DNA from: Arbacia lixula
Lineage: Eukaryota; Echinodermata; Echinoidea; Arbacioida; Arbaciidae
NCBI GenBank assembly: GCA_963669155.1
Contig: OZ022592.1
Coordinates: 21,389,218-21,453,217, forward strand
Length of the DNA: 64,000 nucleotides
Direction of reading: 5' to 3'
Part shown: positions 28,811-55,826 of the stretch, in pieces
Numbering within the stretch: position 1 is the first letter of the stretch
Layout of the letters: the number at the start of each line of letters is the position of its first letter
Made by a program: the position numbers and the translations under genes
Notes under the pieces: generated by a model
The model's input: only the letters and a program-made list of their open reading frames with translations
What the model was told of the DNA's origin: nothing
Databases searched by the model: none

Positions 28811-28833
28811 CACGGTTCACGCTGACAACTTTA

Positions 28834-32290: not shown

Positions 32291-32368
32291 TGGGAAGATT
32301 TGTGGCTCAATGGGTAAGGCGCTGTTTTAAGAACGCGAGGCCCCCGGCTCGAATCGTGGTGTGGGAAG
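32291..32368 (+). other. tRNA-like Pol III module (in U)
   Basis: Box A-like TGGCTCAATGG and box B-like GGCTCGAATCG spaced as in a tRNA, but with poor acceptor pairing. Confidence 0.55.
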
Positions 32369-32869
32369 AGTCAATTTTTCTATTCCTTTTGCAATATTTA
32401 CTTTGCCACCTTCTTCTGTTCTAATCCTCACTTTGTCATTCTCTTTGAGATTTTCTTTCCCTTTTTTCCCTCTCACCCCTTTATCTTACATGACTATTAA
32501 TTACATGTTGTTTACATTATATTTGACCATTTAGGCAAATCTTTGCAATGTTAGTATGTTGAAAGTGCGCTATGAGTTTTCGTTCGCGTTGCCTTTGATT
32601 TCTTATGAATAGATGGTGTCACCGTGGAAGGTCCATGGTGTCACCGTGCATTACCATCCCATGTCTGTGAACGAAGTTGACAATACAGACCACCTTATAC
32701 TTGTCCACAAGTATGTCTCGTTCAACTTGTTTCTTGCAGAGTCAATTCTCTCAGCTTTATGTAGCTCACAACCGTACTCATATACTTGCTTATTACGTTA
32801 CAGTGCTGCCGTGCGTTTTCTATGACCGCGATATCAGCTAACATGAACATGATGACGAAATGATGTCAG

Positions 32870-33148
32870 ATGTTAAAATGTATGTCGCAATATCATACAA
32901 AGTCCTGGATGGTACGATCGAGGTTTCACCGGAAGTATCGCGCAACAAAGACAAAAAAGAATGTTATGAGCTGTGATCTCCTGCACAGGAAGAAAAGCAG
33001 CACAACAGTAGCTGAGTCATACACGCGAGCCAAAACGAAACCATTTACCATGTTTATAAAGAGCGTTATCATGTATGTTGTATCATTCCATACTGGATGC
33101 ACAGCAAATGGTCGACGCTATCGTATCAGCTGTCTTCTAGTAGTTTGA
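32870..33148 (+). CDS. Hypothetical 92-residue ORF of the U repeat, copy 2
   Basis: Same position and length as 3239-3517. It differs at a handful of residues (R to K, N to S, G to D, E to G). The overlapping alternative frame has TGG changed to TGA here. No domain is recognised. Confidence 0.2.
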   Translation: MLKCMSQYHTKSWMVRSRFHRKYRATKTKKNVMSCDLLHRKKSSTTVAESYTRAKTKPFTMFIKSVIMYVVSFHTGCTANGRRYRISCLLVV

Positions 33149-34988
33149 CTTTGGCATCAGAGTTCGGATTCTTTTATCTAAGACCAGAACTTACATAAAC
33201 TTTAGTGATAACGTAAGCCTCATACAATGTAGGAGACAGTAGATTTAATATTTTGCGCAGGTGGAAATTGCATTTTTTTTCTTCTAATTGCATTGTAGAG
33301 CAAACGTCTCAGCACCTGTGCTTAAATCTCTGCGTGGTACATGAAAGCTCAAGTTTGAAGTCGGACGAACTTTTGTAAAGTAGCTGATCAAGGTAAGATG
33401 GCCTTCGTTTAAACCAATCCTTCGTTATACTTTGACCATGATGACGACGCTGGACACATTTCTCTGTCCGTGAGAGAGAAAGAGATGGGTGGGGCCAGTA
33501 AAACAGTTGAAAAAAGAGAAAGGATGAGAAGAGAAGAGAAAGAGAGAGAGAGAGTAAAAGGAGGCAGAGAGTTCTCTTTTCTGTTTTTCCTTTATCTCTG
33601 TCTCTGTATATCTGTCTGTCTGTCTGTCTCTCATCCATTCTCTCTCTCTCCCTCTCTACCCCCCCCCCCCCTCTCTCTCTCTCTCCGTCTCGCCCTATTC
33701 CTCATCTCCGTCTTTCTTTATTAGGTGATCTGTCGGTTACGACAGATCACTTACTAATTTCGTTGGAATTTTCTTTCTTATTTTTATTCCATGCCCCCCA
33801 TTTTTTGTGTGGAAACTTTATCTCAACAATGCACATGTCATGTTTCACCAAATTTCCATCATGTATAGGTATGTATGTGAACATGTTCCCGCAACATTTC
33901 CAGGGTAACTTTATAATCGTGACGTCATCTACGAGCAATTTAATCAAAATCAATTATTGGATATATCTCTTGAACTAATAATTTATATGTCATGAAATTT
34001 GACATGCATGAAGTTAACGACGTGACAATTAATTTCAATGAATGAAAATGCGCGCGTACGCGTACTTTAGCGCAAAAGCGCGCGCAAATTTTAAAAATGC
34101 TCTAAATCAACTAAAAATTGTTTTGCATATGTTTCAGGCCTTTTCTAGCATTTAAAAAAATTCAGCGCGTGCGCGGGCGTTCGCGCGTTTTTCCGTGCGT
34201 TACGTGTACACAGCCTCAAAATTCCTTTTTTTTCTACTAATTGCATGTTTTTGACACTACTAACATCACATCCAGCAATTATCGAGGCATTTCCATGCAT
34301 TAACATGGTCGTGCGGGTACGTTAAAGCTGAAAGGTTGCGCGTCCGTGAATACGCTTTTCTGTGCAAATATTGTAAGAAAACGTGACTGTCTTCAAGCGG
34401 CCATAGCTCCTTAGAATGGCTGATGACCCCCATTTTTTAACATTCGGAAAGAGTATGAAATGTAGATGTGATTTCATTTGTCATTTTACTGGTAAATACA
34501 TCGCGACGTCATCATATTGCCATATGAATCAAAAAATGAATTTTCATGTATGACGTCCGATTTTTTTTTTACTCGTTTTTGCGTATCTCAGTAATTCTTC
34601 ATCTTTTTTCTCCCAAATTTCAGTATGTTGTGCCTAAGACATTGCTCTATGGTAGGGTTGCCTTAATTTCTCATTTTTAACACGTCTTCAATGTGTAAAT
34701 TTGATTATAGGCATTAATATCAAAATCAAACGTATGTACGTGTAATGTCAATGGGAGAGTCATTTATTTGAAATCATAATTGACATGACGATCTTTTAGG
34801 AGCTGTATTTTACTTATGTTTGGACATTTTACTCTGTAATTTAGTATGTTGTAGCTGACTCTTCTAGCTTTTGGGGTCTTTGCCTCCGTTTATCAATGAG
34901 ATGTCGGGATCATGGCCGAATTACAGCTTGAATATCGACTTCTATAAATCATTCTAGACCCAACTGTGCTTGCGCGTGTTAAGTGAAT

Positions 34989-35068
34989 GGGAAGATTTGT
35001 GGCTCAAAGGGTAAGGTGCTGTTTTAAGAACGCGAGGCCCCCGGTTCGAATCGTGGTGTGGGAAGAGT
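34989..35068 (+). other. tRNA-like Pol III module (in U)
   Basis: Box A-like TGGCTCAAAGG and box B-like GGTTCGAATCG, the latter close to the tRNA consensus. Not a functional tRNA by pairing. Confidence 0.5.
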
Positions 35069-35566
35069 CAATTTTTCTATTCCTTTTGCAATGTTTACTT
35101 TGCCACCTTCTTCTGTTCTATCCATTACTTTGTCATTCTCTTTGAGATTTTCTTTCCCTTTTTTCCCTCTCATCCCTTTATCTTACATGACTATTAATAA
35201 CATGTTGTTTACATTATATTTGACCATTTAGGCAAATCTTTGCAATGTTAGTATGTTGAAAGTGCGCTATGAGCTTTCGTTCGCGTTGCCTTTGATTTCT
35301 TATGAATAGATGGTGTCACCGTGGAAGGTCCATGGTGTCACCGTGCATTACCATCCCATGTCTGTGAACGAAGTTGACAATACAGACCACCTTATACTTG
35401 TCCACAAGTATGTCTCGTTCAACTTGTTTCTTGCAGAGTCAATTCTCTCAGCTTTATGTAGCTCACAACCGTACTCATATACTTGCTAATTACGTTCTAG
35501 TGCTGCCTTGCGTTTTCTATGACCGCGATATCAGCTAACATGAACATGATGACGAAATGATGTTAG

Positions 35567-35845
35567 ATGTTAAAATGTATGTCGCAATATCATACAAGGT
35601 CCTGGATGGTACGATCGAGGTTTCACCGGAAGTATCGCGCAACAAAGACAAAAAAAAATGTTATGAACTGTGGTCTCCTGCACAGGAAGAAAAGCAGCAC
35701 AACAGTAGCTGAGTCATACACGCGAGCCAGAACGAAACCATTTACCATGTTTATAAAGAGCGTTATCATGTATGTTGTATCATTCCATACTGAATGCACA
35801 GCAAATGGTCGACGCTATCGTATCAGCTGTTTTCTAGTAGTTTGA
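35567..35845 (+). CDS. Hypothetical 92-residue ORF of the U repeat, copy 3
   Basis: Equivalent to 3239-3517 with three residue changes. No recognised domain. Confidence 0.2.
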   Translation: MLKCMSQYHTRSWMVRSRFHRKYRATKTKKNVMNCGLLHRKKSSTTVAESYTRARTKPFTMFIKSVIMYVVSFHTECTANGRRYRISCFLVV

Positions 35846-36249
35846 CTTTGGCATCAGAGTCCGGATTCTTTTATCTAAGACCAGAAGTTAAACTTTGTGA
35901 TAACGTAAGCCTCATACAATGTACAATGTAGGAGACAGTAAATTAAATATTTTGCCCAGGCGGAAATTGGATTCTTTTCTTCTTTTTATTTTCTAATTGC
36001 ATTGTAGAGCAAACGCCTCAGCACCTGTGCTTAAATCTCTGCGTGGTACATGAAAGCTCAAGTTTGAAGTCGGACGAACTTTTGTAAAGTAGCTGATCAA
36101 GGTAAGATGGCCTTCGTTTAAACCAATCCTTCGTTTTACTTTGACCATGATGACGACGCTGGACACATTTCTCTTTCCGCGAGAGAGAAAGGGGTGGGTG
36201 GGGCCAGTAAAACAGTTAAGAAAAATAGAAAGGATGAGAAGAGAAGAGA

Positions 36250-36296
<47 letters not shown>

Positions 36297-36370
36297 AGAA
36301 AGAGAGAGAGAGAGTGGAAGGATGCAGAGAGTTCTCTTTTTTCTGTTTTTCCTTTGTCTCTGTCTCTGTA

Positions 36371-36427
<57 letters not shown>

Positions 36428-36544
36428 CATTCTCTCACTCTCTCCCTCTCTACCCCCCCCCCCCCCTCTCTCCGTCTCGCCCTATTCCTCATCTCCGCCT
36501 TTCTTTATTAGGTGGTCTGTCGTAACCGAATAAGACGGTTAGTC

Positions 36545-36959
36545 AATTTGATCTACACTAGTACTAGTACTAGGGTAAAGAGGTTGTTATACCAACAACG
36601 TTAGTCTAAAAGCTAGACAGAGATATTTCGAGGAAATTTCAATGTTCATCCAATATCGCGTCGCTCTCGCATATCACGTACATTGTATCTACGAGCGCAA
36701 ATACAAACACACGCACGCGAAGGTGAACCGCACCTGGGTATTTCGCAATACCAGCGGTTGGAAGTCCCGCTTTACATTCGCGTTGTCTAGTATTTCAGAC
36801 CCCTGCATGAATTTAGAGAGAAAAAAGTACTACACCTGCATAGGCCATGGGCCAGAAACCGAAAAGGCCCCTCCCCTTAGCCACAATTTCAAACAATGTT
36901 TTTATGTAGGCAGGACCCTCAGCTTTCAGAATCTGCCTGTTTGCCATTGCATTGGTGGT
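36545..36959. other. Spacer with an unsupported 136-codon ORF
   Basis: An ATG ORF runs from 36642 to 37052 but has no recognisable domain, and its end runs into the repeat family. The stretch is slightly GC-richer than its flanks. No counterpart was seen in copy A, so it is an insertion or a deletion in A. Confidence 0.3.
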
Positions 36960-38200
36960 GGGTGTGGCCACTATGGCCGTTACCGTGGTAACATGTCAAT
37001 GAAATTTGGGAATTTAAAGAAGTTACGAAATTGTCATATTTTTCTTAAATGATAACATAAAAAGACAAAATTGGTATGTAAGTATACATTTCAAGAGTTT
37101 CCCAATTAATTCTGATAGTAATCTAAGCCATTTAAGGCCACGGTCATGCGCAAAAATGGTTATTGCCATGGAAACGATATGAACCGAAAAAGGCAATTTT
37201 GTTAGAAAACCACTCAAATATATGTGAATGCACAGCAAAAAACCTAATCTCAATTTATAATTTTATAAATATTTAGATGCCAGAATAGTAACAATATGTA
37301 AATACACAGCAAAAAACATAATTCTAGTTTATGTTTGTATGAATATTAAGATGCCAAAATAGCAGCAATCAAGATTGAGTCATTTTAAAGTGATAACTGC
37401 AACGCAATAACGATTGTCGCTATTTGACAACACCACGGTGCCAAAAAATATTGAACTTACAGAAATAAAAACACAAAATTGGTGTCTATCAAGGTGCTCA
37501 GTTGATTCTGATTGCAATCTAAGTCGTGTATTAAAGGTCATGATCATACCTAAAAGAGTTGTTGTCATGGAAACAATATATAAAAAGGCATTATGTTAGA
37601 AAAATATTCAAATACATGTAACTACGCAGCACAAAACCTAATCCTTCGTTCTATTTTTATGAATATTTACATGCCAGAATAGTAGAAATAAAAATTTAGT
37701 CATTTCTATGTGATAACTGTCATACATGAAACGACTGTTGCTATGACACCACAATGATGTCAACAATATTAAAATTACAGAATTATAAGAAAGTGTCATA
37801 TATTTCCCATATGGTGAATTAAAAACACAAACTAGGTGTCTAGGTATACATTTTTTCGAGGTGCACAGTTAATTTTGATTGCAATCTAATTCATTTAAGA
37901 TCACAATTATGCCTAAATTAGTAGTACAGTAGTATAGTAGTTGCTGCCATGGAAATGATGTGAACAAAAAAAGCAAATTTGTAAGAAAACCATTCAAATA
38001 TATATAGAATTATTTCGCACAAAACCTTATCCTAATTTATATTAGTATGAATATTTAGATGCCAAAATGTAAGTAATCATGATTGAAGTATTTCTAAGTG
38101 ATAACTCTCATACCTCAAATGACTGTTGTTATGGCAACACCATGGCGGCAAAAATAAAATTGATATGCTAATTACATACAAAGCAATTCCGAGGTAAAGT
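36960..38200. repeat. 330-370 bp repeat family, several units
   Basis: Motifs recur about every 320-390 bp: GTTGTCATGGAAAC, GTTGTTATGGCAAC (38125-38138), GATGCCAGAATAGTA and GTGCTCAGTTGATTCTGATTG. GTTACCGTGGTAAC at 36979-36992 is a perfect palindrome at the left edge. Matches 5549-5920 directly and 6720-7660 in inverse. Confidence 0.75.
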
Positions 38201-38940
38201 GAGGCACTTTGATCTCTTGTACTTTCTAATTGTCATTGTCATAGTATCTCACCAATCAAGAATGACAATTCCAGAACATGGTTAACATACATATCATTTC
38301 ACCATATATAATCTATTATCTCAAATTTATTGATTGATCGCAATCAAGATCTGAAATATTTTTTAAGTTGTGGTAATGCCAAATACAAGTTGTTACTAGG
38401 GCAAAGGCACGATCGAATATAAAATAATTTGCCATTATCATTATTTGTTTCATTATCATTTGTTTTTCTTTTCTTTTGGTTTGTTTGGATGGAGGAGCTA
38501 CGTACCACTAAACATACCCATGTAGATAGTAATGTATGTATTTTTGTTCTCTGGTTGATTGCAATCAATATTTTGGTCATATTGTTAGCTGATTATTGTG
38601 GGCATTCTGAAAGTGGTTATGCTAACATAATATTTAGATAAGGGAAGTTCAGAAAAATTCATGCCTTGAAAACAAAATATAAGTATAAGTATAAGTAAAC
38701 AATATAATACAATATATAGAGATACATACCAGAATCTTCTAAATTAAATGCAATAAAATGTTCAAGTTATCCTAATCAATTAAAGTCATGGTCAGGTCAA
38801 GGATTGTTGCTACACCAACTCGTGATTTGGGGAACTTTTATTTGAAAACTAGTTTACTGAAACCAAAATATTGTTTCTCAAGTAACTAGGTATTGGACTG
38901 TTATAGCTATCTTGTTGATTGCAATCAAGATGTTGATAGC
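38201..38940. other. AT-rich non-coding DNA
   Basis: No gene. Short ORFs near 38344-38641 lack motifs. No match to copy A was seen. Confidence 0.4.
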
Positions 38941-41262
38941 TTAAGTCAAGGTCTATGGGGGAGGGGAGCATAAATTACAAGTTTCAGGCTTTCACCTATG
39001 CTCTATTGATGTCACTCTCCAACAACCCAAAACCATTAGATAGAAGTTCAGCATAATTGTCGATTACACCACAAACTTACCAAAAATGGACACAAACGGA
39101 AATACAGTCGGAGGGTCCGTTAGATGCATGTATGTTGCATGCTCAGGATGAGGATGTCCACCATAAGATAAGATACCTGATACAGATAGATATTACAATG
39201 TGGTTTTACAGATGTGCAGGAAGAGTCTTTGGATAATGACAGTGATGCAGATGACAATTCATCTGAAAAGCTTGAAATTCATATTTCTATGCACTTTCAG
39301 TGTGTCTTTTGGTGTTAAAGTGGGTGAAATGTATATATTTGACTGAGACATTGCCATGCCAACAACCAAGTACTTCACACTGATTTCAGAGCACTGTGAC
39401 ATGTGATGACATTAAATGAATTGAATTTTTTTTTTAGTCGCCTAATATATGTAACTAAGCACTTTCATAGAGTTTTAACAGGGTAAAATTACAAATATGT
39501 CATTTTATGAAAATCGATTACTTGATTGATTAGTTGTCATGACAATGGCTTCACACTAACATCAACTATGGTTTTGAGAGGAAACATGCACATTATGATA
39601 TCTCATGGTTAATTAGAAAGATTTAGGATTAGGTTTTTTGCTACTTATTTACATATATCTCAATGGTTTTCTAAAACAAAATGCGTTTTTTGTATATTGT
39701 TTCCATGACAACAACTATTTCTTGGTATGATCATGACTTTACATGACTTATATTCTGATCAAAATCAACTAGGCACCTTGCAAAATGTATACTTACACAC
39801 TTATTCTGTGTTTTTATGCATTAATTGTGTTCATACTTGGTCCAAATGATCCTTGGGTAATACCGCATGTGTGTTGATGAGGATGATGAGGTCAAAGGTC
39901 ATCTAGGCACCATTTTAAATATTTGACGAAAAAAAACTTAGCACTTTTATTGATTGCGAAATCAGGCGAGACTCGTGGTTCGCGAACCACCTTGTTCAAT
40001 TTATTCCTCTTTTCTCTTCCATTTGCTCTGGGACTTTGCAATTTCTTAAACTCAGTTGAGACATGTTAAGTACAACAGTATGTACAAAGAACAAGTCACA
40101 TATTCCAGGTTCAATGATGTAGAGCAAGATGTATAGGTGTTCGCTGGGTGAAGGTCTCAACTCATCTCCCTTCCCTAAGAATTTCCCCTCGAGCCACATG
40201 AGAAACAACAGGATTCGGGGGTGTGGTCTAACTTATTGGGGTAACATTTGCATCTTGGATATGGGAGAAGCTAGGGGTGTTGCCTCTGCCTGGTGGCTTG
40301 ACCAAGAGACAAAGAGAACGTTGTGGGAATTACTTGTATAGATGGAGATGCGTGGTCAATTTGTGGTTTGGATGAGAGAGTGCTTAGAAGACTTATGATG
40401 TGGTTTGAGCAGGAGAGACGCAACAGAGATTGGTATGCATCATTGTCAATGTACCATTGAATTTCTGTGTGAAAGTTAACTATTTAATTTCTCAGTCTAT
40501 CATTTGGGGGCAATGTTTAGCCATTTTTGGCAATGTCGATTGATCTTTGACCTATGAATTCTTTGACTTCCAATCTAAATTTAGTCATACAACCTTGTAT
40601 CAAGTTTTTTTGAAATGGGATTATTAAATTCAGTTATTTGGAAAGAAAGATTTTAGTAAAATTCATTAATCTTTCACGTTTCAGGAACTTTACCCCAAAA
40701 TGTAATCAGTCTACCTCCATGCAATGATACATCATTGCATGTTTGGTTGGAATTGCATTTGGAGTTAGTGTGAAAACTATGAATTTGGGAACAATCTTAT
40801 ATAGCCAATTTAAGCAAGGACATTGACATTAAGACCTCTGACATTTCAGTAATTATTGTTCCAAATACTTCATCAGTCTACCTCCACGCCGTGATTCATC
40901 CTTGTACCATGTTTGGTTGAAATTGAATCATTGGATATGGAATTATTATGAAAAATATTGATTGGGGGGCAAGTTTCAGCCATTTTGGCAAAGTAAAATG
41001 ACCTTATTACCTCTGACCTTTCAAGAATCAAATAACTAATATGTCATTATGGTTTGGGGATCTCAAGTATCAGGTCACAACCTCCCCCCACCCCCCCCCC
41101 CCCCCCCCCTCCTGACTTGATATACTCGTTGAATCATCAAAGGCAACTAAAACCGTGTCTCCAACACGTGAAAGATTATCAGATAGGCCTCGTCCGAATG
41201 AGATTTTAAAATTGCGATGTGCAATCCGTCGATGTCAATATATATTGCTATGCACCATGGCC
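38941..41262. repeat. Repeat block, copy B of a segmental duplication
   Basis: Matches 5930-9711 in order, with two deletions relative to A. Contains the palindrome GTGGTTCGCGAACCAC at 39975-39990 and the 70-codon ORF at 40129-40341. Similarity ends at TATGCAC (41262), shortly before the assembly gap. Confidence 0.8.
40129..40341 (+). CDS. Hypothetical 70-residue ORF, second copy
   Basis: One residue different from 8562-8774. No recognised domain; could equally be a chance frame kept by recent duplication. Confidence 0.15.
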   Translation: MYRCSLGEGLNSSPFPKNFPSSHMRNNRIRGCGLTYWGNICILDMGEARGVASAWWLDQETKRTLWELLV

Positions 41263-41300
41263 GGAAATCCCGGGGGGGGGGGGGGACGCCCCCCCCCCCT
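41263..41300. repeat. G-run and C-run hairpin at the gap edge
   Basis: CATGGCCGGAAATCCC is followed by a 13-14 base G-run, ACG, and a C-run of about 12. The runs can pair into a strong hairpin, a likely cause of the sequence break at 41301. Confidence 0.8.
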
Positions 41301-41500
41301 NNNNNNNNNNNNNNNNNNNNNNNNNNNNNNNNNNNNNNNNNNNNNNNNNNNNNNNNNNNNNNNNNNNNNNNNNNNNNNNNNNNNNNNNNNNNNNNNNNNN
41401 NNNNNNNNNNNNNNNNNNNNNNNNNNNNNNNNNNNNNNNNNNNNNNNNNNNNNNNNNNNNNNNNNNNNNNNNNNNNNNNNNNNNNNNNNNNNNNNNNNNN
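41301..41500. other. Assembly gap of exactly 200 N
   Basis: The round length suggests a default scaffolding gap of unknown true size. Confidence 0.99.
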
Positions 41501-41843
41501 CCTAACCCTAACCCTAACCCTAACCCTAACCCTAACCCTAACCCTAACCCTAACCCTAACCCTAACCCTAACCCTAACCCTAACCCTAACCCTAACCCTA
41601 ACCCTAACCCTAACCCTAACCCTAACCCTAACCCTAACCCTAACCCTAACCCTAACCCTAACCCTAACCCTAACCCTAACCCTAACCCTAACCCTAACCC
41701 TAACCCTAACCCTAACCCTAACCCTAACCCTAACCCTAACCCTAACCCTAACCCTAACCCTAACCCTAACCCTAACCCTAACCCTAACCCTAACCCTAAC
41801 CCTAACCCTAACCCTAACCCTAACCCTAACCCTAACCCTAACC

Positions 41844-41875
<32 letters not shown>

Positions 41876-44800
41876 AACCCTAACCCTAACCCTAACCCTA
41901 ACCCTAACCCTAACCCTAACCCTAACCCTAACCCTAACCCTAACCCTAACCCTAACCCTAACCCTAACCCTAACCCTAACCCTAACCCTAACCCTAACCC
42001 TAACCCTAACCCTAACCCTAACCCTAACCCTAACCCTAACCCTAACCCTAACCCTAACCCTAACCCTAACCCTAACCCTAACCCTAACCCTAACCCTAAC
42101 CCTAACCCTAACCCTAACCCTAACCCTAACCCTAACCCTAACCCTAACCCTAACCCTAACCCTAACCCTAACCCTAACCCTAACCCTAACCCTAACCCTA
42201 ACCCTAACCCTAACCCTAACCCTAACCCTAACCCTAACCCTAACCCTAACCCAACCCTAACCTAACCCTAACCCTAACCCTAACCCTAACCCTAACCCTA
42301 ACCCTAACCCTAACCCTAACCCTAACCCTAACCCTAACCCTAACCCTAACCCTAACCCTAACCCTAACCCTAACCCTAACCCTAACCCTAACCCTAACCC
42401 TAACCCTAACCCTAACCCTAACCCTAACCCTAACCCTAACCCTAACCCTAACCCTAACCCTAACCCTAACCCTAACCCTAACCCTAACCCTAACCCTAAC
42501 CCTAACCCTAACCCTAACCCTAACCCTAACCCTAACCCTAACCCTAACCCTAACCCTAACCCTAACCCTAACCCTAACCCTAACCCTAACCCTAACCCTA
42601 ACCCTAACCCTAACCCTAACCCTAACCCTAACCCTAACCCTAACCCTAACCCTAACCCTAACCCTAACCCTAACCCTAACCCTAACCCTAACCCTAACCC
42701 TAACCCTAACCCTAACCCTAACCCTAACCCTAACCCTAACCCTAACCCTAACCCTAACCCTAACCCTAACCCTAACCCTAACCCTAACCCTAACCCTAAC
42801 CCTAACCCTAACTAACCCTAACCCTAACCCTAACCCTAACCCTAACCCTAACCCTAACCCTAACCCTAACCCTAACCCTAACCTAACCCTAACCCTAACC
42901 CTAACCCTAACCCTAACCCTAACCCTAACCCTAACCCTAACCCTAACCCTAACCTAACCCTAACCCTAACCCTAACCCTAACCCTAACCCTAACCCTAAC
43001 CCTAACCCTAACCCTAACCCTAACCCTAACCCTAACCCTAACCCTAACCCTAACCCTAACCCTAACCCTAACCCTAACCCTAACCCTAACCCTAACCCTA
43101 ACCCTAACCCTAACCTAACCCTAACCCTAACCCTAACCCTAACCCTAACCCTAACCCTAACCCTAACCCTAACCCTAACCCTAACCCTAACCCTAACCCT
43201 AACCCTAACCCTAACCCTAACCCTAACCCTAACCCTAACCCTAACCCTAACCCTAACCCTAACCCTAACCCTAACCCTAACCCTAACCCTAACCCTAACC
43301 CTAACCCTAACCCTAACCCTAACCCTAACCCTAACCCTAACCCTAACCCTAACCCTAACCCTAACCCTAACCCTAACCCTAACCCTAACCCTAACCCTAA
43401 CCCTAACCCTAACCCTAACCCTAACCCTAACCCTAACCCTAACCCTAACCCTAACCCTAACCCTACCCCACCCTAACCCTAACCCTACCCAACCCCACCC
43501 TACCCACCACCCACCCAACCCTAAACCCTAACCCTAACCCTAACCCTACCCTACCTAACCCTAACCCCCACCCCACCCTAACCCACCCTAACCCTAACCC
43601 TAACCCTAACCCTAACCCTAACCCTAACCCTAACCCTAACCCTAACCCTAACCCTAACCCTAACCCTAACCCTAACCCTAACCCTAACCCTAACCCTAAC
43701 CCTAACCCTAACCCTAACCCTAACCCTAACCCTAACCCTAACCCTAACCCTAACCCTAACCCTAACCCTAACCCTAACCCTAACCCTAACCCTAACCCTA
43801 ACCCTAACCCTAACCCTAACCCTAACCCTAACCCTAACCCTAACCCTAACCCTAACCCTAACCCTAACCCTAACCCTAACCCTAACCCTAACCCTAACCC
43901 TAACCCTAACCCTAACCCTAACCCTAACCCTAACCCTAACCCTAACCCTAACCCTAACCCTAACCCTAACCCTAACCCTAACCCTAACCCTAACCCTAAC
44001 CCTAACCCTAACCCTAACCCTAACCCTAACCCTAACCCTAACCCTAACCCTAACCCTAACCCTAACCCTAACCCTAACCCTAACCCTAACCCTAACCCTA
44101 ACCCTAACCCTAACCCTAACCCTAACCCTAACCCTAACCCTAACCCTAACCCTAACCCTAACCCTAACCCTAACCCTAACCCTAACCCTAACCCTAACCC
44201 TAACCCTAACCCTAACCCTAACCCTAACCCTAACCCTAACCCTAACCCTAACCCTAACCCTAACCCTAACCCTAACCCTAACCCTAACCCTAACCCTAAC
44301 CCTAACCCTAACCCTAACCCTAACCCTAACCCTAACCCTAACCCTAACCCTAACCCTAACCCTAACCCTAACCCTAACCCTAACCCTAACCCTAACCCTA
44401 ACCCTAACCCTAACCCTAACCCTAACCCTAACCCTAACCCTAACCCTAACCCTAACCCTAACCCTAACCCTAACCCTAACCCTAACCCTAACCCTAACCC
44501 TAACCCTAACCCTAACCCTAACCCTAACCCTAACCCTAACCCTAACCCTAACCCTAACCCTAACCCTAACCCTAACCCTAACCCTAACCCTAACCCTAAC
44601 CCTAACCCTAACCCTAACCCTAACCCTAACCCTAACCCTAACCCTAACCCTAACCCTAACCCTAACCCTAACCCTAACCCTAACCCTAACCCTAACCCTA
44701 ACCCTAACCCTAACCCTAACCCTAACCCTAACCCTAACCCTAACCCTAACCCTAACCCTAACCCTAACCCTAACCCTAACCCTAACCCTAACCCTAACCC

Positions 44801-45632
44801 TAACCCTAACCCTAACCCTAACCCTAACCCTAACCCTAACCCTAACCCTAACCCTAACCCTAACCCTAACCCTAACCCTAACCCTAACCCTAACCCTAAC
44901 CCTAACCCTAACCCTAACCCTAACCCTAACCCTAACCCTAACCCTAACCCTAACCCTAACCCTAACCCTAACCCTAACCCTAACCCTAACCCTAACCCTA
45001 ACCCTAACCCTAACCCTAACCCTAACCCTAACCCTAACCCTAACCCTAACCCTAACCCTAACCCTAACCCTAACCCTAACCCTAACCCTAACCCTAACCC
45101 TAACCCTAACCCTAACCCTAACCCTAACCCTAACCCTAACCCTAACCCTAACCCTAACCCTAACCCTAACCCTAACCCTAACCCTAACCCTAACCCTAAC
45201 CCTAACCCTAACCCTAACCCTAACCCTAACCCTAACCCTAACCCTAACCCTAACCCTAACCCTAACCCTAACCCTAACCCTAACCCTAACCCTAACCCTA
45301 ACCCTAACCCTAACCCTAACCCTAACCCTAACCCTAACCCTAACCCTAACCCTAACCCTAACCCTAACCCTAACCCTAACCCTAACCCTAACCCTAACCC
45401 TAACCCTAACCCTAACCCTAACCCTAACCCTAACCCTAACCCTAACCCTAACCCTAACCCTAACCCTAACCCTAACCCTAACCCTAACCCTAACCCTAAC
45501 CCTAACCCTAACCCTAACCCTAACCCTAACCCTAACCCTAACCCTAACCCTAACCCTAACCCTAACCCTAACCCTAACCCTAACCCTAACCCCTAACCCT
45601 AACCCTAACCCTAACCCTAACCCTAACCCTAA
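41501..45632. repeat. Telomere repeat array (CCCTAA)n
   Basis: About 4.1 kb of nearly perfect CCCTAA hexamers, the C-rich strand reading away from the gap. Small slips (such as CCCAACCCTAACC near 41870 and 42250, and ACTAACCC near 42810) and one noisy patch at 43465-43600 interrupt it. The TTAGGG telomere type is usual for deuterostomes and many other animals, but not for most insects. No TTAGGG-oriented array is present on the left of the gap. Confidence 0.99.
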
Positions 45633-46333
45633 CCCGTACCCTAACCCGTACCCTAACCCGTACCCTAACCCGTACCCTAACCCGTACCCGTACCCGTACC
45701 CGTACCAGGACCCGTACCCGTACCCGTACCCGTACCCGTACCCGTACCCGTACCCGTACCCGTACCCGTACCCTAACCCGTACCCGTACCCGTACCCGTA
45801 CCCGTACCCGTACCCGTACCCGTACCCGTACCCGTACCCGTACCCGTACCCTAACCCGTACCCGTACCCGTACCCGTACCCTAACCCGTACCCTAACCCG
45901 TACCCGTACCCGTACCCGTACCCGTACCCGTACCCGTACCCGTACCCGTACCCGTACCCGTACCCGTACCCGTACCCTAACCCGTACCCGTACCCGTACC
46001 CGTACCCGTACCCGTACCCGTACCCGTACCCGTACCCTAACCCGTACCCTAACCCGTACCCGTACCCTAACCCGTACCCGTACCCGTACCCGTACCCGTA
46101 CCCGTACCCGTACCCTAACCCGTACCCTAACCCGTACCCTAACCCGTACCCTAACCCGTACCCTAACCCGTACCCGTACCCGTACCCTAACCCGTACCCG
46201 TACCCTAACCCGTACCCGTACCCTAACCCGTACCCGTACCCTAACCCGTACCCTAACCCGTACCCGTACCCGTACCCGTACCCGTACCCGTACCCGTACC
46301 CGTACCCGTACCCGTACTCGTACCCGTACCCGT
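45633..46333. repeat. Variant telomere repeats (CCCGTA)n mixed with CCCTAA
   Basis: From 45633 the hexamer CCCGTA (TACGGG on the other strand) alternates with CCCTAA and then dominates, in runs of up to about 17. Hexamer register is almost fully kept; exceptions are CAGGACC near 45706 and CTCGTA near 46316. The block ends at CCCGTCTTCC, where unique sequence begins. Placement between pure telomere and subtelomere matches the proximal variant zone of real telomeres. Confidence 0.97.
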
Positions 46334-46421
46334 CTTCCTTAGCTTAATCTTCAGTCTAATTTTTAGTTCTCTGTGCGATTTTTTTCCACATAGCCCATAA
46401 ATCACTTGAAAAATATTTATT
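46334..46421. other. Telomere-satellite junction
   Basis: 88 bp of AT-rich sequence without recognised repeats join the variant hexamers to the first V unit. Confidence 0.6.
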
Positions 46422-46452: not shown

Positions 46453-47800
46453 CTTGTTTTTGTCCGATTTTTCTTTCTTTATTAGGTGGTCTGCCATGCA
46501 GATCACCTTTTGTTTTCGTCCGAATTTTCTTTCTTTATTATTTATTAGGTGGTCTGTCGTGCACCGACAGATCACCTTCTAATTTCGTCAGAATCTTCTT
46601 TCTTATTTTTATTCCTTGCCCCCCACTTTTTTGTGGCATGGATATCTCAAGAATGCACGTGTCATGTCTTATGATATTTTTACCATGTATAGGTATACAT
46701 GTGAACTTGCGAAAATAACATTTTCAAGGTCATGGCATAATCGTGACGTCATCTACGAGCAATTTAATGAAAACCTATTAACGTTCATATCTCCAGAACT
46801 GATCATATTTAGCCAATGAAAATTAATATGCATAAAATTAATGATGTGACAATAAATTTTAATGAATAAAAACGCGCGCGTACGCGTGCGTTAGTGCAAA
46901 ATCGCGCGCGCAAAATTTTAAAATGCTCCAAATCAACTCAAAATTGTTTTGCATATGTTTCAGGTCATTTCAAACATCTCAAAAATTTCCGCGCGTGTGC
47001 GCGCGTTCGCGCGTTTTTTCGTGCGTAACGCGTACGCAGCCTCAAAATTCCATGTTTTTACTGGTTTCATGTCTCTGACACTACAAACAACACATCCTGC
47101 AATTTTGAGCCATTTCCATGCCATAACAAGGTCGTGCGGGTACGTCAAAGTTGAAAGTCTGCGCGTGCGTCAATACGTTTTCGTGTGCAAATATTGCAAA
47201 AAACATGACTACCTTCAATCGGTCATAGCTCTTTAAAATGGCCGGTGACCCCCATTTTTTTTTTAATATTTGGAAAGAGTGGGAATTGTAAATGCTATTT
47301 CATGTATCATTCGGTCGTTAAAAACATCGTGACGTCATCATATTGCCATATGAATCGAAAAAAATAACTTTCATGTATGACGTCATAAACGTTTTTACCC
47401 GTTCTTGCGTATCTCAGTAATCCTTGGTCAATTTTCTTCCAAATTTCAGTATGTGATAGCTGGGACATTGCGCTATGTAAAATTTGCCCTAATTTATTAA
47501 TAGACTACCATCTTCATGGTATAAATTTGATTATAGGCATATATGTCAAAATCGGTCGTATGCATGTTTTATGTCAATGGAAGGGGTTTTTATGAAATGA
47601 CATGACGAGCTTCTAGGAGCTGTATCTCTCTCATGTTCAATTCTGTTACTCTGAAAAGTTAGTATGTTGTAGCTGAGTCTACTAGCTTTCGAGGACGTCA
47701 TCTTTGTTTTAAATCAAATGTCGCGATCATAGCGAAATTTTAGCTTGAATATCAATTTCTTAATCATTCTAGCCCCCGCTGGGCATTACGTGTTAAGTGA

Positions 47801-47881
47801 ATGGGAAGATGTGTGGCTCAATGGGTAAGGCGCCGCGTTTGAAGACCTCGAGGCCCCTGGTTCGATTCCCGGAGTGGGTAG
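47801..47881 (+). other. tRNA-like Pol III module (V1)
   Basis: Box A-like TGGCTCAATGG and box B-like GGTTCGATTCC, the best match to tRNA promoter consensus in the window. The T-arm pairs 4 of 5 bases; the acceptor stem is not convincing. Confidence 0.6.
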
Positions 47882-48237
47882 GGTCAATTTTTGTATTCCT
47901 TTTGCAATGTTTATTTTGTCATCTTCTTCTGTTCTATCCCTCACTTTGTCATTCTCTTTGAGATTTTCTTTCCCATTCGTTTTCTCTCGCCCCTTTACCT
48001 TACGTGGCTATTAATTACATGTTAGCACAATATACATGTAACCATTTCGGCATGTGTCTGAAATGTTAGTAGACATTGTAGGTGCGCTATGAGCTTTCTT
48101 GAGCGGAGTCTCTGATTGCTTATGAATAGATGGTGTCACGATTGAAGGTCCATATCACCGTGCATTTTCTAGCCCATGTCTGTGCATGAATTCGCCAATG
48201 CAGACCACCTTATACTTGTCCACAAGTATGTCTCGTT

Positions 48238-49860
48238 TATTTATTTATTTTTATTCCAAATTTTTGTGGCATGGATATCTCAACAATGCATTGGCCATTT
48301 TTCATTAAATCTTTATCATGCATGGGTATATACGTGAACATGTTCCAGCAACATTTTCAAGGTCATGACGTCATCGTGACGTCATGCACGAGCAATTTGA
48401 TGAAAATCTATTATTTCATGTAGCTCTAGAAATGATCATTTCTGTGTAATGAAATTTAATATGGATATAATTAATAAGTAGCCAATTAATTTCATTGAAA
48501 AAAAACGCGCGCGTACGCGTACGTTAGTGCTAAAACGCGCGCGCAAAATTTTAAAATGCTCCAAATCAACTTAAAATTGTTTTGCATATGTTTCAGGCCA
48601 TTTCTAGCATTTCAAAAATTTCCGCGCGTACGCGCGCGTTCGCGCGTTTTCCGTGCGTAACGCGAACAAAACGTCAAAATTCCGTTTTTTTTACTGCATT
48701 CATGTTGCTGACACTACATACAACATATCCTGTCATTTTGAGCCATTTCCATGCAATAACAAGGTCGTGCGGGTGCGTCAAAGTTCAAAGTCTGCGCGTG
48801 CGTCAATACGTTTTCGTGTGCAAATATAGTAAAAAACATGACTACCTTCAATCGGCCATGGCTCTTCAGAATGGCTGGTGACCCCCAATTTTTTTTCAAT
48901 ATTCTGAAAGAGTGGGAAATGTAGATGTGATTTAATGTTCGATTTACCTTCTAAATTTATGTTGATGTCATCATATTGCCATATGAATCGAAAAAATGAT
49001 TTTTCATGTATGACGTCATGAACTTTTTTACCCGCTTTTGTGTATCTCAGTAATCCATGGTCAATTTTCTCCCAAATTTCAGTATGTTGTAGCTGAGACC
49101 TCGCTCCATAGTAGGAGTTGCCTTCATTTTTCATTTTGATGACGTCTTCATGGTGTAAATTTCATTATACGCATGAATGTCAAAATCGCACTTCCGTGTT
49201 ATGTCAATGGAAGTGGTATTTATGAAATGACATGACGAGCTTCTAGGAGATGTATCTCACTAACATGTCAAGCTTTCACTCTGAAATTTCAGTATGTTGT
49301 AGCTGAGTCTACGAGCTTTCCGAAACGTTGTCTCCATTTTTTAATCAGATGTCGGGATCATGATGAAATTTCAGCTTGAATATCGATTTCTTAATCATTC
49401 TAGCCCCTGCTGGGCATTACGTGTTAAGTGAATGGGAAGATTTGTGGCTCAATAGGTAAGGCGCCGTTTTAAGATCTCGAGGCCCCCGGTTCTATTCCTG
49501 GCGTGGGTAGGGTCAACTTTTGCATTCCTTTTGCAATGTTTATTTTGCCATCTTCTTCTGTTCTATCCCTCACTTTTTCATTCTCTTTGAGATTTTCTTT
49601 CCAATTCTTTTTTCTCTCGCCCCATTCTCTTACATGACTATTAATCACGTTAGCATAAACATGTTACCATTTAGGAAATTCTCTGAAATGTTAGTATAAT
49701 AGGTGCCCTATGAGCTTTCTTGAGCGATGTCTCACATTGCTTATGGATAGACGGTGTCACGAATGAAGGTCTATAGTTCACCGTGCATTTTCCAGCCCAT
49801 GTCTGTGCATGAATTTGCCAATGCAGACCACCTGATACTTGTCCACAAGTATGTCTCGTT
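48238..49860. repeat. V satellite unit 2
   Basis: Lacks the hairpin and starts with a TTTATT-rich stretch. Holds paired TGACGTCA sites near 48366-48386, the CpG tract at about 48504-48545, and a tRNA-like module at 49434. Shares private features with unit 4 (TTTAATGTTCGATTTACC; AATAGGTAAGGCGCCG). Confidence 0.92.
49434..49510 (+). other. tRNA-like Pol III module (V2)
   Basis: Box A-like TGGCTCAATAGG; box B reads GGTTCTATTCC, one change from consensus. Confidence 0.5.
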
Positions 49861-49913
49861 AGGTGGTCTGCCATGCAGATCACCTCTTGTGTTTGTCCGA
49901 ATTTTCTTTCTTT

Positions 49914-49944
<31 letters not shown>

Positions 49945-51125
49945 TTCCAATTTTTTGTGGCATGGATATCTCAACAATGCATGGGCCATTTTTCATGAAA
50001 TCTTCATCATGCATGAACATGTACGTGAACATGTTCCAGCAACATTTTCAAGGTCATGACGTCATCGTGACGTCATCTACGAGCAATTTAATGAAAATCA
50101 ACTATTAGATATATCTCTTGAACCAATCATTGATATGTAATGAAATTTGACATGCATGAAATTAATGATAAGGCAATTAATCTTAATAAATGAAAACGCG
50201 CGCGTACGCGTACGTTAGTGCAAAAACGCGCGCGCAAAATTTTAAAATGCTCCAAATCAACTCAAAATTGTTTTGCATATGTTTCAAGCCATTTCTAGCA
50301 TTTCAAAAATTTCCGCGCGTGCGCGCGCATTCGCGCGTTTTTCCGTGCGTAACGCGAACGGAACGTCAAAATTCCGTTTTTTTACTGGATTCATGTTACT
50401 GACACTACATAAAACACATCCTGTCATTTTGAGCCATTTCCATGCAAAAACAAGGTCATGAGAGTGCGTCAAAGTTGAAAGTCCGTGCGTGCGTCAATAC
50501 GCTTTTGTGTGCAAATATTGCAAAAAACATGACTACCTTCAATCGGCCATAGCTCTTCAGAATGGCCGGTGACCCCCATTTTTTTTTAAATATTTGGAAA
50601 GAGTATGAAATGTAGATGTCATTTCATGTGTCATTTTACCGGTAAGTACATGGTGACGTCATCATCTTGCCATATGAATCGAAAAAATGAATTTTCAATT
50701 ATGACGTCATAAATTTTTTTACCCGCTTTTGCATATCTCAGTAATCCTTGGTCATTCTTCTCCCAAATTTCACTCTGATGTAGCCGAGACCTTCTTCTAT
50801 ATATAACTATTATTTATTTGTCATTTAGATGACGTCTTCATGGTGTAAATTTCATTATACGCATTAGTGTCATATAATCGGGCGCATGTACGTGTTATGT
50901 CAATGGAAGGGGTATTTATGAAATGACATGACGACCTTCTAGGAGCTGTATCTCACTAACGTTTGAATCTGTTAATCTGAAATTTTATAATGTTGTAGCT
51001 GAGTCTACGAGCTTTCCGAGACGTCTCTATTTTTTAATCAGATGTCGGGATCATGGTGAAATTTCAGCTTGAATATCGATTTCTTAATCATTCTAGCCCC
51101 TGCTGGGCATTACGTGTTAAGTGAA

Positions 51126-51210
51126 TGAGAAGATGTGTGGCTCAATGGGTAAGCCGCAGTTTTAATACATGTACTCGAGGCCCCCGGTTCGATTCCTGGC
51201 GTGGGTAGGG
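51126..51210 (+). other. tRNA-like Pol III module (V3)
   Basis: Box A-like TGGCTCAATGG and box B GGTTCGATTCC, with an altered anticodon-arm region. Confidence 0.55.
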
Positions 51211-51454
51211 TCCCGGGGGGGGGGGGGGGCACTCAAATTATATTTTGATGGGGGTGTGCCTCACGAAACCCTGAAATGGGGGTCTAAGGAACTGACTACA
51301 AGGGTAAAATCCGCGTAAAATGTGGGGTCTTAGGAACTAAAAATACACCGCCCGGCATTGTGAAAAACAGGGTCTACAGAACGATCCTCGCTGCACATGC
51401 GACGCGCGTTGTGTTTACGTCAGGGTTTTCTTGCAGCTCGCTCGGCCGGCGGGT
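51211..51454. mobile_element. Insertion/replacement within V unit 3
   Basis: A sequence starting CCCGGGGG... then GGCACTCAAATTATATTTTG and containing repeated GGGGTCT(A/T)AGGAACT words interrupts the unit. It ends near TCGGCCGGCGG. About 330 bp of normal unit sequence (between GGGTAGGGTC and GTGCATGAATTTGCC) is missing. It resembles G-run-started short repeats common in marine invertebrates. No ORF. Confidence 0.6.
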
Positions 51455-51512
51455 CAGTGCATGAATTTGCCAATGCAGACCACCTTATACTTGTCCACAA
51501 GTATGTCTCGTT

Positions 51513-53128
51513 TATTTTTATTCCTAATTTTTGTGGCATTGATATCTCAACATTGCATGGACAATTTTTCATGAAATCTTTATCATGCATTGCTATATAC
51601 GTGAACATGTTCCAGCAACATTTTCAAGGTCATGACGTCATCGTGACGTCATCTACGAGCAATTGAATGAAAATCTATTATCTCATGTAGCTCTAGAACT
51701 AGTCATCTCTGTGTAATGAAATTTGGCATGCATATAATTAATTAGTAGCCAATTAATTTCAATGAATAAAAACGCGCGCGTACGCGTACGTTAGTGCAAA
51801 AACGCGCGCGCAAAATTTATAAATGCTCCAAATCAACTCAAAATTGTTTTGCATATGTTTCAGGCAATTTCTAGCATTTCAAAAATTTCCGCGCGTGCGC
51901 GCGCGTTCGCGCGTTTTTCCGTGCGTAACGCGAACAAAACGTCAAAATTCTGTTTTTTTTACTGGATTCATGTTACTGACACTACATACAACACATCCTG
52001 TCATTTTCAGCAATTTCCATGCAATAACAAGGTCGTGCGGGTGCGTCAAAGTTCAAAGTCTGCGCGTGCGTCAATACGTTTTTGTGTGCAAATATTGCAA
52101 AAAACATGACTACCTTCAATCGGCCATAGCTCTTCAGAATGGCTGGTGACCCCCAATTTTTTTTCAATATTCTAAAAGAGTGGGAAATGTAGATGTGATT
52201 TAATGTTCGATTTACCTTTTAAATTTATGTTGATGTCATCATATTGCTATATGAATCGAAAAAATGATTTTTCATGTATGACGTCATGAACTTTTTTACC
52301 CGCTTTTGTGTATCTCAGTAATCCATGGTCAATTTTCTCCCAAATTTCAGTATGTTGTAGCTGAGACCTCGCTCCATAGTAGGAGTTGCCTTCATTTTTC
52401 ATTTTGATGACGTCTTCACGGTGTAAAATTCATTATACGCATGAATGTCAAAATCGCACTTCCGTGTTATGTCAATGGAAGTGGTATTTATGAAATGACA
52501 TGACGAGGTTCTATGAGATGTATCTCACTAATATGTCAAGCTTTCACTCTGAAATTTCAGTATGTTGTAGCTGAGTCTACGAGCTTTCCGGAACGTTGTC
52601 TCCATTTTTTAATCAGATGTCGGGATCATGGTGAAATTTCAGCTTGAATATCGATTTCTTAATCATTCTAGCCCCTGCTGGGCATTACGTGTTAAGTGAA
52701 TGGGAAGATTTGTGGCTCAATAGGTAAGGCGCCGTTTTAAGATCTCGAGGCCCCCGGTTCGATTCCTGGCGTGGGTAGGGTCAACTTTTGCATTCCTTTT
52801 GCAATGTTTATTTTGCCATCTTCTTCTGTTCTATCCCTCACTTTGTCATTCTCTTTGAGATTTTCTTTCCAATTCTTTTTTCATTCGCCCCATTCTCTTA
52901 CATGACTATTAATCACGTTAGCATAAACATGTTACCATTTAGGAAATTCTCTGAAATGTTAGTATAATAGGTGCCCTATGAGCTTTCTTGAGCGCTGTCT
53001 CACATTGCTTATGGATAGTTGGTGTCACGAATGAAGGTTTAAAGTTCACCGTGCATTTTCCAGCCCATGTCTGTGCATGAATTTGCCAATGCAGACCACC
53101 TGATACTTGTCCACAAGTATGTCTCGTT
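51513..53128. repeat. V satellite unit 4
   Basis: Starts with TTATTTTTATTCC and no hairpin, like unit 2, to which it is closest. CRE-like pair near 51633-51652, CpG tract about 51773-51812, tRNA-like module 52701-52780. Confidence 0.92.
52701..52780 (+). other. tRNA-like Pol III module (V4)
   Basis: Box A-like TGGCTCAATAGG and consensus box B GGTTCGATTCC. Confidence 0.55.
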
Positions 53129-54506
53129 AGGTGGTCTGCCATGCCATGGCAGATCACCTCTTGTTTTCGTCCGAATTTTCTTTCTTTATTTATTTTTATT
53201 CCAAATTTTTGTGGCATGAATATCTCAACAATGCATGAACCATGTTTCATGAAATTTTAATCATGTATGAATATATATGTGAACATGTTCCAGCAACATT
53301 TTCAAGGTCATGACGTCATCGTGACGTCATCTACGAGCAGTTTAATGAAAAACTATTACCTCATGTAGCTCTAGAACTGGTCATCTCTGTGTAATGAAAT
53401 TTGGCATGCATATAATTAATGAGTAGCTAATTAATTTCATTGAAAAAAACGCGCGCGTACGCGTACGTTAGTGCAAAAACGCGCGCGCAAAATTTTAAAA
53501 TGCTCAAAATCAACTCAAAATTGTTTTGCATATGTTTCAGGTCATTTCTAGCATTTCAAAAATTTCCGCGCGTGCGCGCGCGTTCGCGCGTTTTTCCGTG
53601 CGTAACGCGAACAAAACGTCAAAATTCCGTTTTTTTTTACTGGATTCATGTTACTGACACTACATACAACACATCCTGTCATTTTGAGCCATTTCCATGC
53701 AATAACAAGGTCGTGCGGGTGCGTCAAAGTTGAAAGTCTGCGCGTGCGTCAATATGTTTTTGTGTGCAAATATTGCAAAAAACATGACTACCTTCAATCG
53801 GCCATAGCTCTTCAGAATGGCCGGTGACCCCCAATTTTTTTTTAATATTTAGAAAGAGTATGAAATGTAAATGTCATTTCATGTGTCATTTTACCGGTAA
53901 GTACATGGTGACGTCATAATATTGCCATATAAATCGTAAAAATGAATTTTCAATTATGACGTCATGAACTTTTTTACCCGCTTTTGCATATCTCAGTAAT
54001 CCTTGGTCAATTTTCTCCCAAATTTCACTATGATGTAGCCGAGACCTTCTTCTATAAATAACTTTCATTTATTTGTCATTCAGATAATGTCTTCATGTTG
54101 TAAATTTCATTATACGCATTGGTGTCATAATCGGACGCATGTACGTGTTTTGTCAATGGAAGGGGCATTTATGAAATGACATGACGACCTACTAGGAGCT
54201 ATATCTCGCTGATGTTTGAATCTGTTACTCTGAAATTTTAGTATGTTGTAGCTCAGTCTACTAGCTTTCGGAATCGTCTGGTCCACTTTTTTATCAGATG
54301 TCGGGATCATTGTGAAATTTCAGCTTGAATATCGATTTCTTTATTACTCTAGCCACTGCCTTCGGGCATTACGTGAAAAGTGAATGCGAAGATTTGTGGC
54401 TCAATGGGTAAGGCGATGTTTTATGAACGTGCATTTACCAGCCCATGTCAGTGCACGAATTTGCCAATGCAGACCACCTTATACTTGTCCACAAGTATGT
54501 CTCGTT
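53129..54506. repeat. V satellite unit 5, shortened
   Basis: Opens with the palindromic hairpin at 53129-53159. Closest to unit 3 by private variants. After the box A word (54400) it jumps to GTGCATTTACCAGCCCATG, losing box B and about 270 bp. Confidence 0.9.
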
Positions 54507-55826
54507 ATTTATTTATTTTTATTCCAAATTTTTGTGGCATGGATATCTCTTCAATGCATGAGCCATTTTTCATGAAATCTTCATCATGCATGTACATGTA
54601 CATGAACATGTTCCAGCAACATTTTCAAGGTCATGACGTCATCGTGACGTCATCTACGAGCAATTTAATGAAAATTGATTATCGGATATATCTCTTGAAC
54701 CAATCATTGATATGTAATGAAATTTGACATGCATAAAATTAATGATAAGCCAATTAATCTCAATAAATAAAAACGCGCGCGTACGCGTACGTTAGTGCAA
54801 AAACGCGCGCGCAAAATTTTAAAATGCTCAGAATCAACTCAAAATTGTTTTACATATGTTTCAGGCAATTTTAAGCATTTCAAAAATTTCCGCGCGTGCG
54901 AGCGCGTTCGCGCGTTTTTCCGTGTGTAACGCAAACAAAACGTCAAAATTCCGTTTTTATACTGGATTCATGTTAATGACACTACATACAACACATCCTG
55001 TCATTTTGAGCCATTTCCATGCAATAACAAGGTCGTGCGGGTGCGTCAAAGTTGAAAGTCTGCGCGTGCGTCAATACGTTTTTGTGTGCAAATATAGTAA
55101 AAAACATGACTACCTTCAATCGGCCATAGCTCTTCAGAATGGCCGGTGACTTCCAATTTTTTTTTAATATCTGGAAAGAGGATGAAATGTAGATGTCATT
55201 TCATGTGTCATTTTACCGGTAAGTACATGGTAACGTCATCATATTGCCATATGAATCGAAAAAATGAATTTTCAATTATGACGTCATGAACTTTTTTACC
55301 CGCTTTTGCATATCTCAGTAATCGTTTGTCAATTTTCTCCCAAATTTCACTATGTTGTAGCTGAGACCTTCACCTATAGTTACCTTTCATTTATTAGTCA
55401 ATTTCATGACGTCTTCATGGTGTAAATTACATTATACGCATTGGTGTCATAATCGGACGCATGTACGTGTTATGTCAATGGAAGGGGTATTAATGAAATG
55501 ACATGACGACCTACAAGGAGCTATATCTCGCTGATGTTTTAATCTGTTATTCTGAAATTTTAGTATGTTGTAGCTCAGTCTACTAGCTTTTAGAATCGTT
55601 GCTCCACTTTTTTATCAGTTTCGGGATCATGGTAAAATTTCAGCTTGAATATCGATTTCTTAATCATTCTAGCCACTGCTGGCGGGCATTACGTAAAAAG
55701 TGAATGCGAAGATTTGTGGCTCAATGGGTAAGGCGATGTTTTATGAACGTGCATTTACCAGCCCATGCCAGTGCATGATTTTGCCAATGCAGACCACCTT
55801 ATACTTGTCCACAAGTATGTCTCGTT
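54507..55826. repeat. V satellite unit 6, shortened and last
   Basis: Has the same internal deletion as unit 5 (GCGATGTTTTATGAACGTGC), so the shortened form was itself duplicated. The array ends exactly at the unit boundary word TGTCTCGTT (55826). Confidence 0.9.

What the first reader, a model, noticed from the sequence alone, without database searches (positions are those of the whole stretch)
41263..46421. A chromosome-end telomere sits inside the scaffold after a default-size gap
The C-rich strand (CCCTAA) reads away from the gap, pure repeats come first, then variant repeats, then satellite. That is the polarity of a left chromosome end. A head-to-head fusion would show TTAGGG on the left of the gap, and none is there. 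The left side ends in a hairpin-prone G-run/C-run. A scaffolding mis-join is the simplest reading; a fusion with one telomere lost is the alternative.
Basis: partly seen in the sequence, partly recalled or inferred. Interest (0 to 1): 0.85.

Follow-up and report, generated by a model that had tools for sequence, protein, structure and literature searches.

The report
Real telomere, misplaced by genome assembly
A genuine chromosome-end telomere appears inside a scaffold most likely because the scaffold's last piece, which carries it, was attached with the telomere facing inwards; this looks like an ordinary assembly error and not an unusual chromosome.

Summary
A 200-N gap (41301-41500) is followed by 4.1 kb of CCCTAA repeats, 0.7 kb of CCCGTA/CCCTAA variants and about six satellite units; no TTAGGG run lies to the left. 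The window is C17:21389218-21453217 of a 21,499,267-bp scaffold. The telomere-bearing contig (68,550 bp) is the scaffold's last piece, unless 5 kb that read N hide a gap, and the scaffold's free end has no telomere. Turning that contig round would put the telomere at the end with correct polarity. The left side stops inside an ordinary ~32-kb repeat unit; in four other copies unit sequence follows, directly in two and after an interruption in two. So it looks like an assembly break, not a fusion scar. Which chromosome the contig belongs to is uncertain: its unit copy is the most divergent of five on C17, C20's end has a related copy in plus orientation, and its neighbours' orientation does not fit a simple reversal. 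Artefact about 0.92; reversed in place about 0.55. Low interest.

The parts
1..32345 (+). one ~32.3-kb unit of the subtelomeric tandem array (used here as the reference unit)
   Evidence: related copies in the same orientation in the contigs left (Ca) and right (Cc) of this one
32056..41281 (+). next, truncated array unit; its last 1.4-1.5 kb align at 92-94% to four other copies
41263..41300 (.). GGAAATCCC, G-run, C-run at which contig Cb stops; a copy in contig Ca has the same GGAAATCCC plus G-run, with a C-run some bases further on, at the start of a ~250-bp insert after which the unit resumes
41301..41500 (.). 200-N scaffold gap (C17:21430518-21430717)
41501..45632 (-). telomere array; C-rich CCCTAA on the + strand, G-rich TTAGGG on the - strand running towards the gap; noisy patch 43461-43585
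45633..46332 (-). proximal variant zone, CCCGTA mixed with CCCTAA; the exact 27-mer of the junction occurs once in the genome as held
46628..55828 (+). V satellite, six copies spaced 1.3-1.7 kb, about 80% identical to reference-unit positions about 1424-3091
58219..59100 (-). frame with an endonuclease/exonuclease/phosphatase domain (9.7e-07; endonuclease-reverse transcriptase model 2.7e-06) in the spacer between V satellite and first unit
62385..64000 (+). start of the first array unit in the telomere-bearing contig Cc, same orientation as in Ca and Cb

Best explanation
The array is a genuine, old chromosome end: purer repeats distal, variant repeats proximal, then subtelomeric satellite and a subtelomeric tandem array. 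The contig that carries it is the last contig of scaffold C17 and was put there in the wrong orientation, so the telomere faces the 200-N gap instead of the scaffold's free end. Shown: the position as last contig (with 5 kb unread), the gap, the polarity, the missing telomere at the free end, and that the left contig stops inside a repeat unit. Inferred: that the contig belongs to this chromosome and was reversed in place, because nearly identical tandem units give a scaffolder little information on orientation.
For: C17 is 21,499,267 bp and the contig after the gap runs 21430718-21499267; no run of N other than 5,000 that abut the window, and no telomere run after the array. Left polarity at the right end of a scaffold is what a reversed terminal contig gives. 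The left neighbour (Cb) stops inside a unit: four other copies align to within 19-58 bp of its end; unit sequence follows there directly in two, after ~250 bp in one and after ~1.8 kb of other sequence in one. In Cc the telomere lies 5' of plus units, so a right-arm telomere of that layout needs minus units; two pieces on the main-chromosome side are minus: the contig end at C17:21244218-21257258 (0 bp plus, 3,473 bp minus at 85% identity and 250 bp or more) and the copy at 21154045-21155989. Unbroken copies covering 1,900 or more of the 2,101-bp unit core number 6 among those scored, all on C17 from 21.15 Mb on (40 of 1,482 candidates scored). The first 70 kb of C17 show no unit match of 150 bp and no telomere run, 5 kb of them reading N.
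Against: Ca and Cb, placed just before Cc, have their units plus (58,216 and 50,819 bp plus, 0 minus, same cut-offs; rows under 85% dropped), so reversing Cc alone leaves it opposed to them; Ca and Cb would have to be reversed or misplaced too. The C20 copy, 10.7-13.9 kb from C20's right end, is plus, so units near right ends are not minus as a rule in this assembly. Cc's unit copy is the most divergent of the five plus copies on C17 (3.3-3.8% from the others, which differ by 1.1-2.9%), and over 600 bp it is about as far from the C20 copy (31/589) as from the C17 copies (28/589 to 31/576). No reads or Hi-C were available.
Confidence: 0.55

Rival explanations
1. The telomere contig is a real chromosome end from another chromosome, or from the other haplotype, that shares this subtelomeric family and was joined to C17 by repeat or Hi-C signal (a mis-join in the strict sense).
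For: The unit family also lies 10.7-13.9 kb from the right end of C20 (in two pieces, 94-95%) and, more diverged, on C21, C62, C63 and C356. Cc's copy is the outlier among the five plus copies on C17. As it stands Cc's orientation agrees with Ca and Cb. A 1-kb piece at the start of Ca is an inverted 90.7% copy of a piece near the end of the contig before it, which looks like unresolved duplicate or haplotype contigs.
Against: It is placed as the last contig of a scaffold end rich in the same array, where a reversal supplies the missing end. The Cc copy is no closer to the C20 copy than to the C17 copies in the 600 bp compared.
Confidence: 0.37
2. A real interstitial telomere: two chromosomes fused, one telomere was lost and the other stayed inside.
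For: The array does stand next to non-telomeric sequence in the scaffold.
Against: There is a gap and no continuous sequence across the junction. The left flank is a unit that goes on, with or without an interruption, in four other copies. Only 68.5 kb lie beyond the gap, largely telomere, satellite and array units with spacers.
Confidence: 0.04
3. A new telomere added at a broken end in some cells or in one haplotype (chromosome healing, or programmed DNA elimination), giving a telomere-capped version of an internal site.
For: The contig starts with telomere and continues into the same sequence family as its neighbour.
Against: A freshly healed end should have pure repeats directly on the broken sequence (general knowledge); here 0.7 kb of variant repeats and six satellite copies come next. 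The exact telomere-variant junction is unique in the genome as held.
Confidence: 0.03

Closest known systems
TTAGGG-type chromosome end with a proximal variant-repeat zone and subtelomeric satellite (general knowledge)
   Same: purer repeats distal, variants proximal, satellite next; C-rich strand as at a left end
   Different: placed next to a scaffold gap 68.5 kb from a right scaffold end with the wrong polarity; the exact CCCGTA junction was found once in this genome
Internal telomere as assembly artefact (giraffe T2T assembly, maternal chr11; PMC12621783, passages read)
   Same: telomere repeats lie a short way inside a sequence whose own tip has none
   Different: there about 18.8 kb supported by a single read lay beyond the telomere; here a whole terminal contig seems reversed or misplaced behind a 200-N gap
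Interstitial telomeric sequence left by chromosome fusion (general knowledge)
   Same: telomere repeats away from a scaffold end
   Different: no head-to-head arrays, no continuous junction, left flank is an ordinary repeat unit

Membership tests
Functional chromosome-end telomere (TTAGGG) | kilobase array of TTAGGG with one strand polarity | tested here: met
   4.1 kb, one polarity
Functional chromosome-end telomere (TTAGGG) | degenerate repeats and subtelomeric repeats on the proximal side | tested here: met
   CCCGTA zone, V satellite and array units on the side away from the gap; but a noisy patch lies inside the array at 43461-43585 and the distal 1.96 kb has 8 small defects
Functional chromosome-end telomere (TTAGGG) | DNA actually ends there (reads stop, Bal31 sensitive) | not testable with these tools
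   no reads available
Fusion-type interstitial telomere | head-to-head arrays or continuous sequence across the junction | tested here: not met
   200 N at the junction, no TTAGGG run on the left
Fusion-type interstitial telomere | flank on the other side is a distinct chromosomal or subtelomeric edge | tested here: not met
   flank is mid-unit sequence; unit follows at that point in four other copies, in two of them after an interruption
Scaffold artefact: reversed or misplaced terminal contig | contig is terminal in its scaffold and bounded by a default-size gap | tested here: met
   a 5-kb stretch that reads N right of the window could hide another gap
Scaffold artefact: reversed or misplaced terminal contig | free end of the scaffold lacks a telomere | tested here: met
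Scaffold artefact: reversed or misplaced terminal contig | orientation agrees with neighbours after reversal | tested here: inconclusive
   agrees with two minus pieces on the main-chromosome side, disagrees with Ca and Cb as placed

The most novel reading that the evidence does not exclude
The telomere really lies inside the chromosome, kept after a fusion or insertion into a living subtelomeric array, with subtelomere on both sides.
Probability: 0.04. Interest if true: 0.55.

Novelty: not a real feature. Interest (0 to 1): 0.1.

Why it matters
It warns against reading this scaffold as a chromosome fusion. It points to a checkable correction of C17's right end, and it shows that the telomere of this end sits on a ~32-kb subtelomeric array family whose units carry a gene-sized open frame. 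A second telomere array lies about 405 kb inside the 55.6-Mb scaffold C1, so the ends of this assembly deserve a general check.

Tried and rejected
Fusion: rejected from the left-flank test. Freshly healed end: disfavoured by the variant zone and satellite. RNA genes in the window: no Rfam match at the gathering cut-offs and no tRNA. Contig of clear C17 ancestry: tested by unit divergence, inconclusive. A genome-wide list of all telomere arrays with their distance from scaffold ends, and a genome-wide search with the V satellite, could not be obtained: the server did not answer. So how often this assembly has inward telomeres rests on this array and the one on C1. The species was not identified. 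The size (607.0 Mb) is near the bat star Patiria miniata v3.0 (608 Mb, N50 23 Mb, PacBio plus Hi-C scaffolded with 3D-DNA, many overlapping contigs, no clear set of scaffolds matching n=22; passages of PMC13317027 read), but that is a guess from size alone. A search for papers giving 607 Mb did not name it (listing). The other paper searches were seen as listings; I recognised nothing in them about a telomere of this genome. PMC10394057 and PMC6117089 were seen as passages only.

Changed after checking against the calls: the insert in the Ca copy is about 250 bp, not 214; the Cc copy has about 1.8 kb of other sequence before the unit resumes; the plus orientation of the C20 copy is now told. 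Because of the last I lowered reversal in place from 0.60 to 0.55 and raised the first rival from 0.32 to 0.37.

Full report
What is there. The window is C17:21389218-21453217 of a 606,990,701-bp genome in 590 contigs. At 41301-41500 there are exactly 200 N. From 41501 the sequence is CCCTAA repeats, from 45633 a mixture of CCCGTA and CCCTAA, and from about 46333 non-telomeric sequence followed by six satellite copies (46628-55828). The control of reversed letters shows that the repeat is far above chance (4,687 forward and 5,529 reverse matches against 0 and 116). One thing was missed: the distal 1.96 kb of the array has 8 small defects and is followed by a 125-base noisy patch (43461-43585), while the next 2 kb have one defect. 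My reading is thinner read cover towards a real end, which is inference; it also means that 'pure repeats first' is only roughly true.

Where it sits. C17 is 21,499,267 bp long. The gap is at 21430518-21430717, so the telomere contig (Cc, 68,550 bp) is the last piece of the scaffold. I fetched all of it; 21453218-21458217 reads N, probably because that stretch is withheld, and could hide a gap. No telomere run lies at the free end. The first 70 kb of C17, of which 5 kb read N, have none either. A second gap of exactly 200 N lies at 21359215-21359414, and a 5,200-N stretch of unclear nature at 21270095-21275294.

What lies on both sides. The contigs Ca (21275295-21359214), Cb (21359415-21430517) and Cc share a tandem array of ~32-kb units in the same orientation (aligned bases 58,216, 50,819 and 26,293 plus and 0 minus, counting matches of 250 bp or more at 85% or more; a few short rows at 76-80% on the other strand fall under that cut). 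The V satellite next to the telomere is about 80% identical to part of the unit, so telomere, satellite and array form one subtelomere. On the main-chromosome side the contig before Ca carries unit sequence mostly in the opposite orientation (21244218-21257258), and so does one more copy at 21154045-21155989. Two 2-kb samples between these, at 21222218 and 21196218, show no unit match of 150 bp or more.

The left edge of the gap. The last 1.4-1.5 kb of Cb align at 92-94% with four other copies, to within 19-58 bases of the end. What follows at that point differs. In the first Ca copy and in the preceding Cb copy the unit simply goes on. In the second Ca copy there is an insert of about 250 bp whose opening, GGAAATCCC and a G-run with a C-run a little further on, matches the end of Cb, and then the unit resumes. 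In the Cc copy about 1.8 kb of other sequence comes first. So Cb stops inside a unit, at a homopolymer-rich insert, and the neighbour to expect on its right is more unit. That removes the main support for a fusion.

Reading. A chromosome end at the right of a scaffold must show TTAGGG towards the right. Here the last contig shows it towards the left. Reversing that contig in place cures the polarity and supplies the missing end, and it brings its units into the orientation of the minus pieces on the main-chromosome side. Three things speak against this. Ca and Cb are plus and would have to be reversed or misplaced as well. C20 (20,868,200 bp) has a copy 10.7-13.9 kb from its right end that is also plus, so orientation near right ends is no firm guide. 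And origin is open: over 2.1 kb the Cc copy differs by 3.3-3.8% from the other four plus copies, which differ by 1.1-2.9% among themselves, and over 600 bp it is about as far from the C20 copy as from the C17 copies (31/589 against 28/589 to 31/576). So I give about 0.55 to a reversal in place, 0.37 to a contig from another chromosome or haplotype, and 0.07 to anything biological. The first two are both artefacts of assembly.

How general. The exact telomere-variant junction occurs once in the genome. Of the other arrays I could place only two, from the first 100 places listed: a run of five repeats at C1:343950, and a long TTAGGG (+) array from C1:405001, about 405 kb inside a 55,639,544-bp scaffold and next to N whose nature I cannot tell. 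Repeated attempts to list the rest did not complete. In the unit-core search only 40 of 1,482 first-look candidates were scored, so copy numbers are lower bounds.

Known precedent. In the giraffe assembly paper (passages) telomere repeats about 18.8 kb inside a contig tip were traced to a tip resting on one misplaced read, and the authors offer a routine to detect internal telomeres. As far as I can see nothing in this window goes beyond that class of error; the literature searches made are named under Tried and rejected.

Noticed in passing
window 15271-17010 (+), and C17:21377031, 21335300, 21310188, 21468059: Units of the subtelomeric array carry a 579-codon frame with a weak B-box zinc finger match (18.1 bits, below the Pfam cut-off of 24.1); five copies at 85-100% identity, one of them matched in two pieces.
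   Followed up: partly
L003, G000:C1:405001 onwards: A second long telomere array, TTAGGG on the + strand, about 405 kb inside a 55.6-Mb scaffold, directly right of N.
   Followed up: partly
window 45633-46332: Variant telomere repeat CCCGTA in 0.7 kb next to the satellite; the exact junction with CCCTAA occurs once in the genome as held.
   Followed up: partly
C17:21265061-21266062 and 21275295-21276293: A 1-kb piece near the end of one contig and the start of the next are inverted copies at 90.7%, as if duplicate or haplotype contigs had been placed tail to tail.
   Followed up: partly
C17:21462010-21463807 (contig Cc): At the same point of the unit where Cb breaks off, the Cc copy has about 1.8 kb of other sequence, with a 375-codon frame at 21462214-21463338, and a Ca copy has a ~250-bp insert: a spot of repeated insertion.
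   Followed up: no
window 24142-28220 (+): Two long frames that look by eye like a retroelement (reverse transcriptase and integrase type; no family search run); the stretch had no match among the other C17 copies (frames).
   Followed up: no
G000:C21 (13.2-19.9 Mb), C62, C63, C356: Many diverged relatives of the unit core, mostly 69-92% identical, on C21 and on C62, C63 and C356; also short matches at 74-77% on C4, C6, C7, C9, C11 and C20.
   Followed up: no
window 46421-46570: Three near copies of a short element (GGTGGTCTG...AGATCACC, an inverted repeat) between the telomere variants and the satellite, seen by eye.
   Followed up: no
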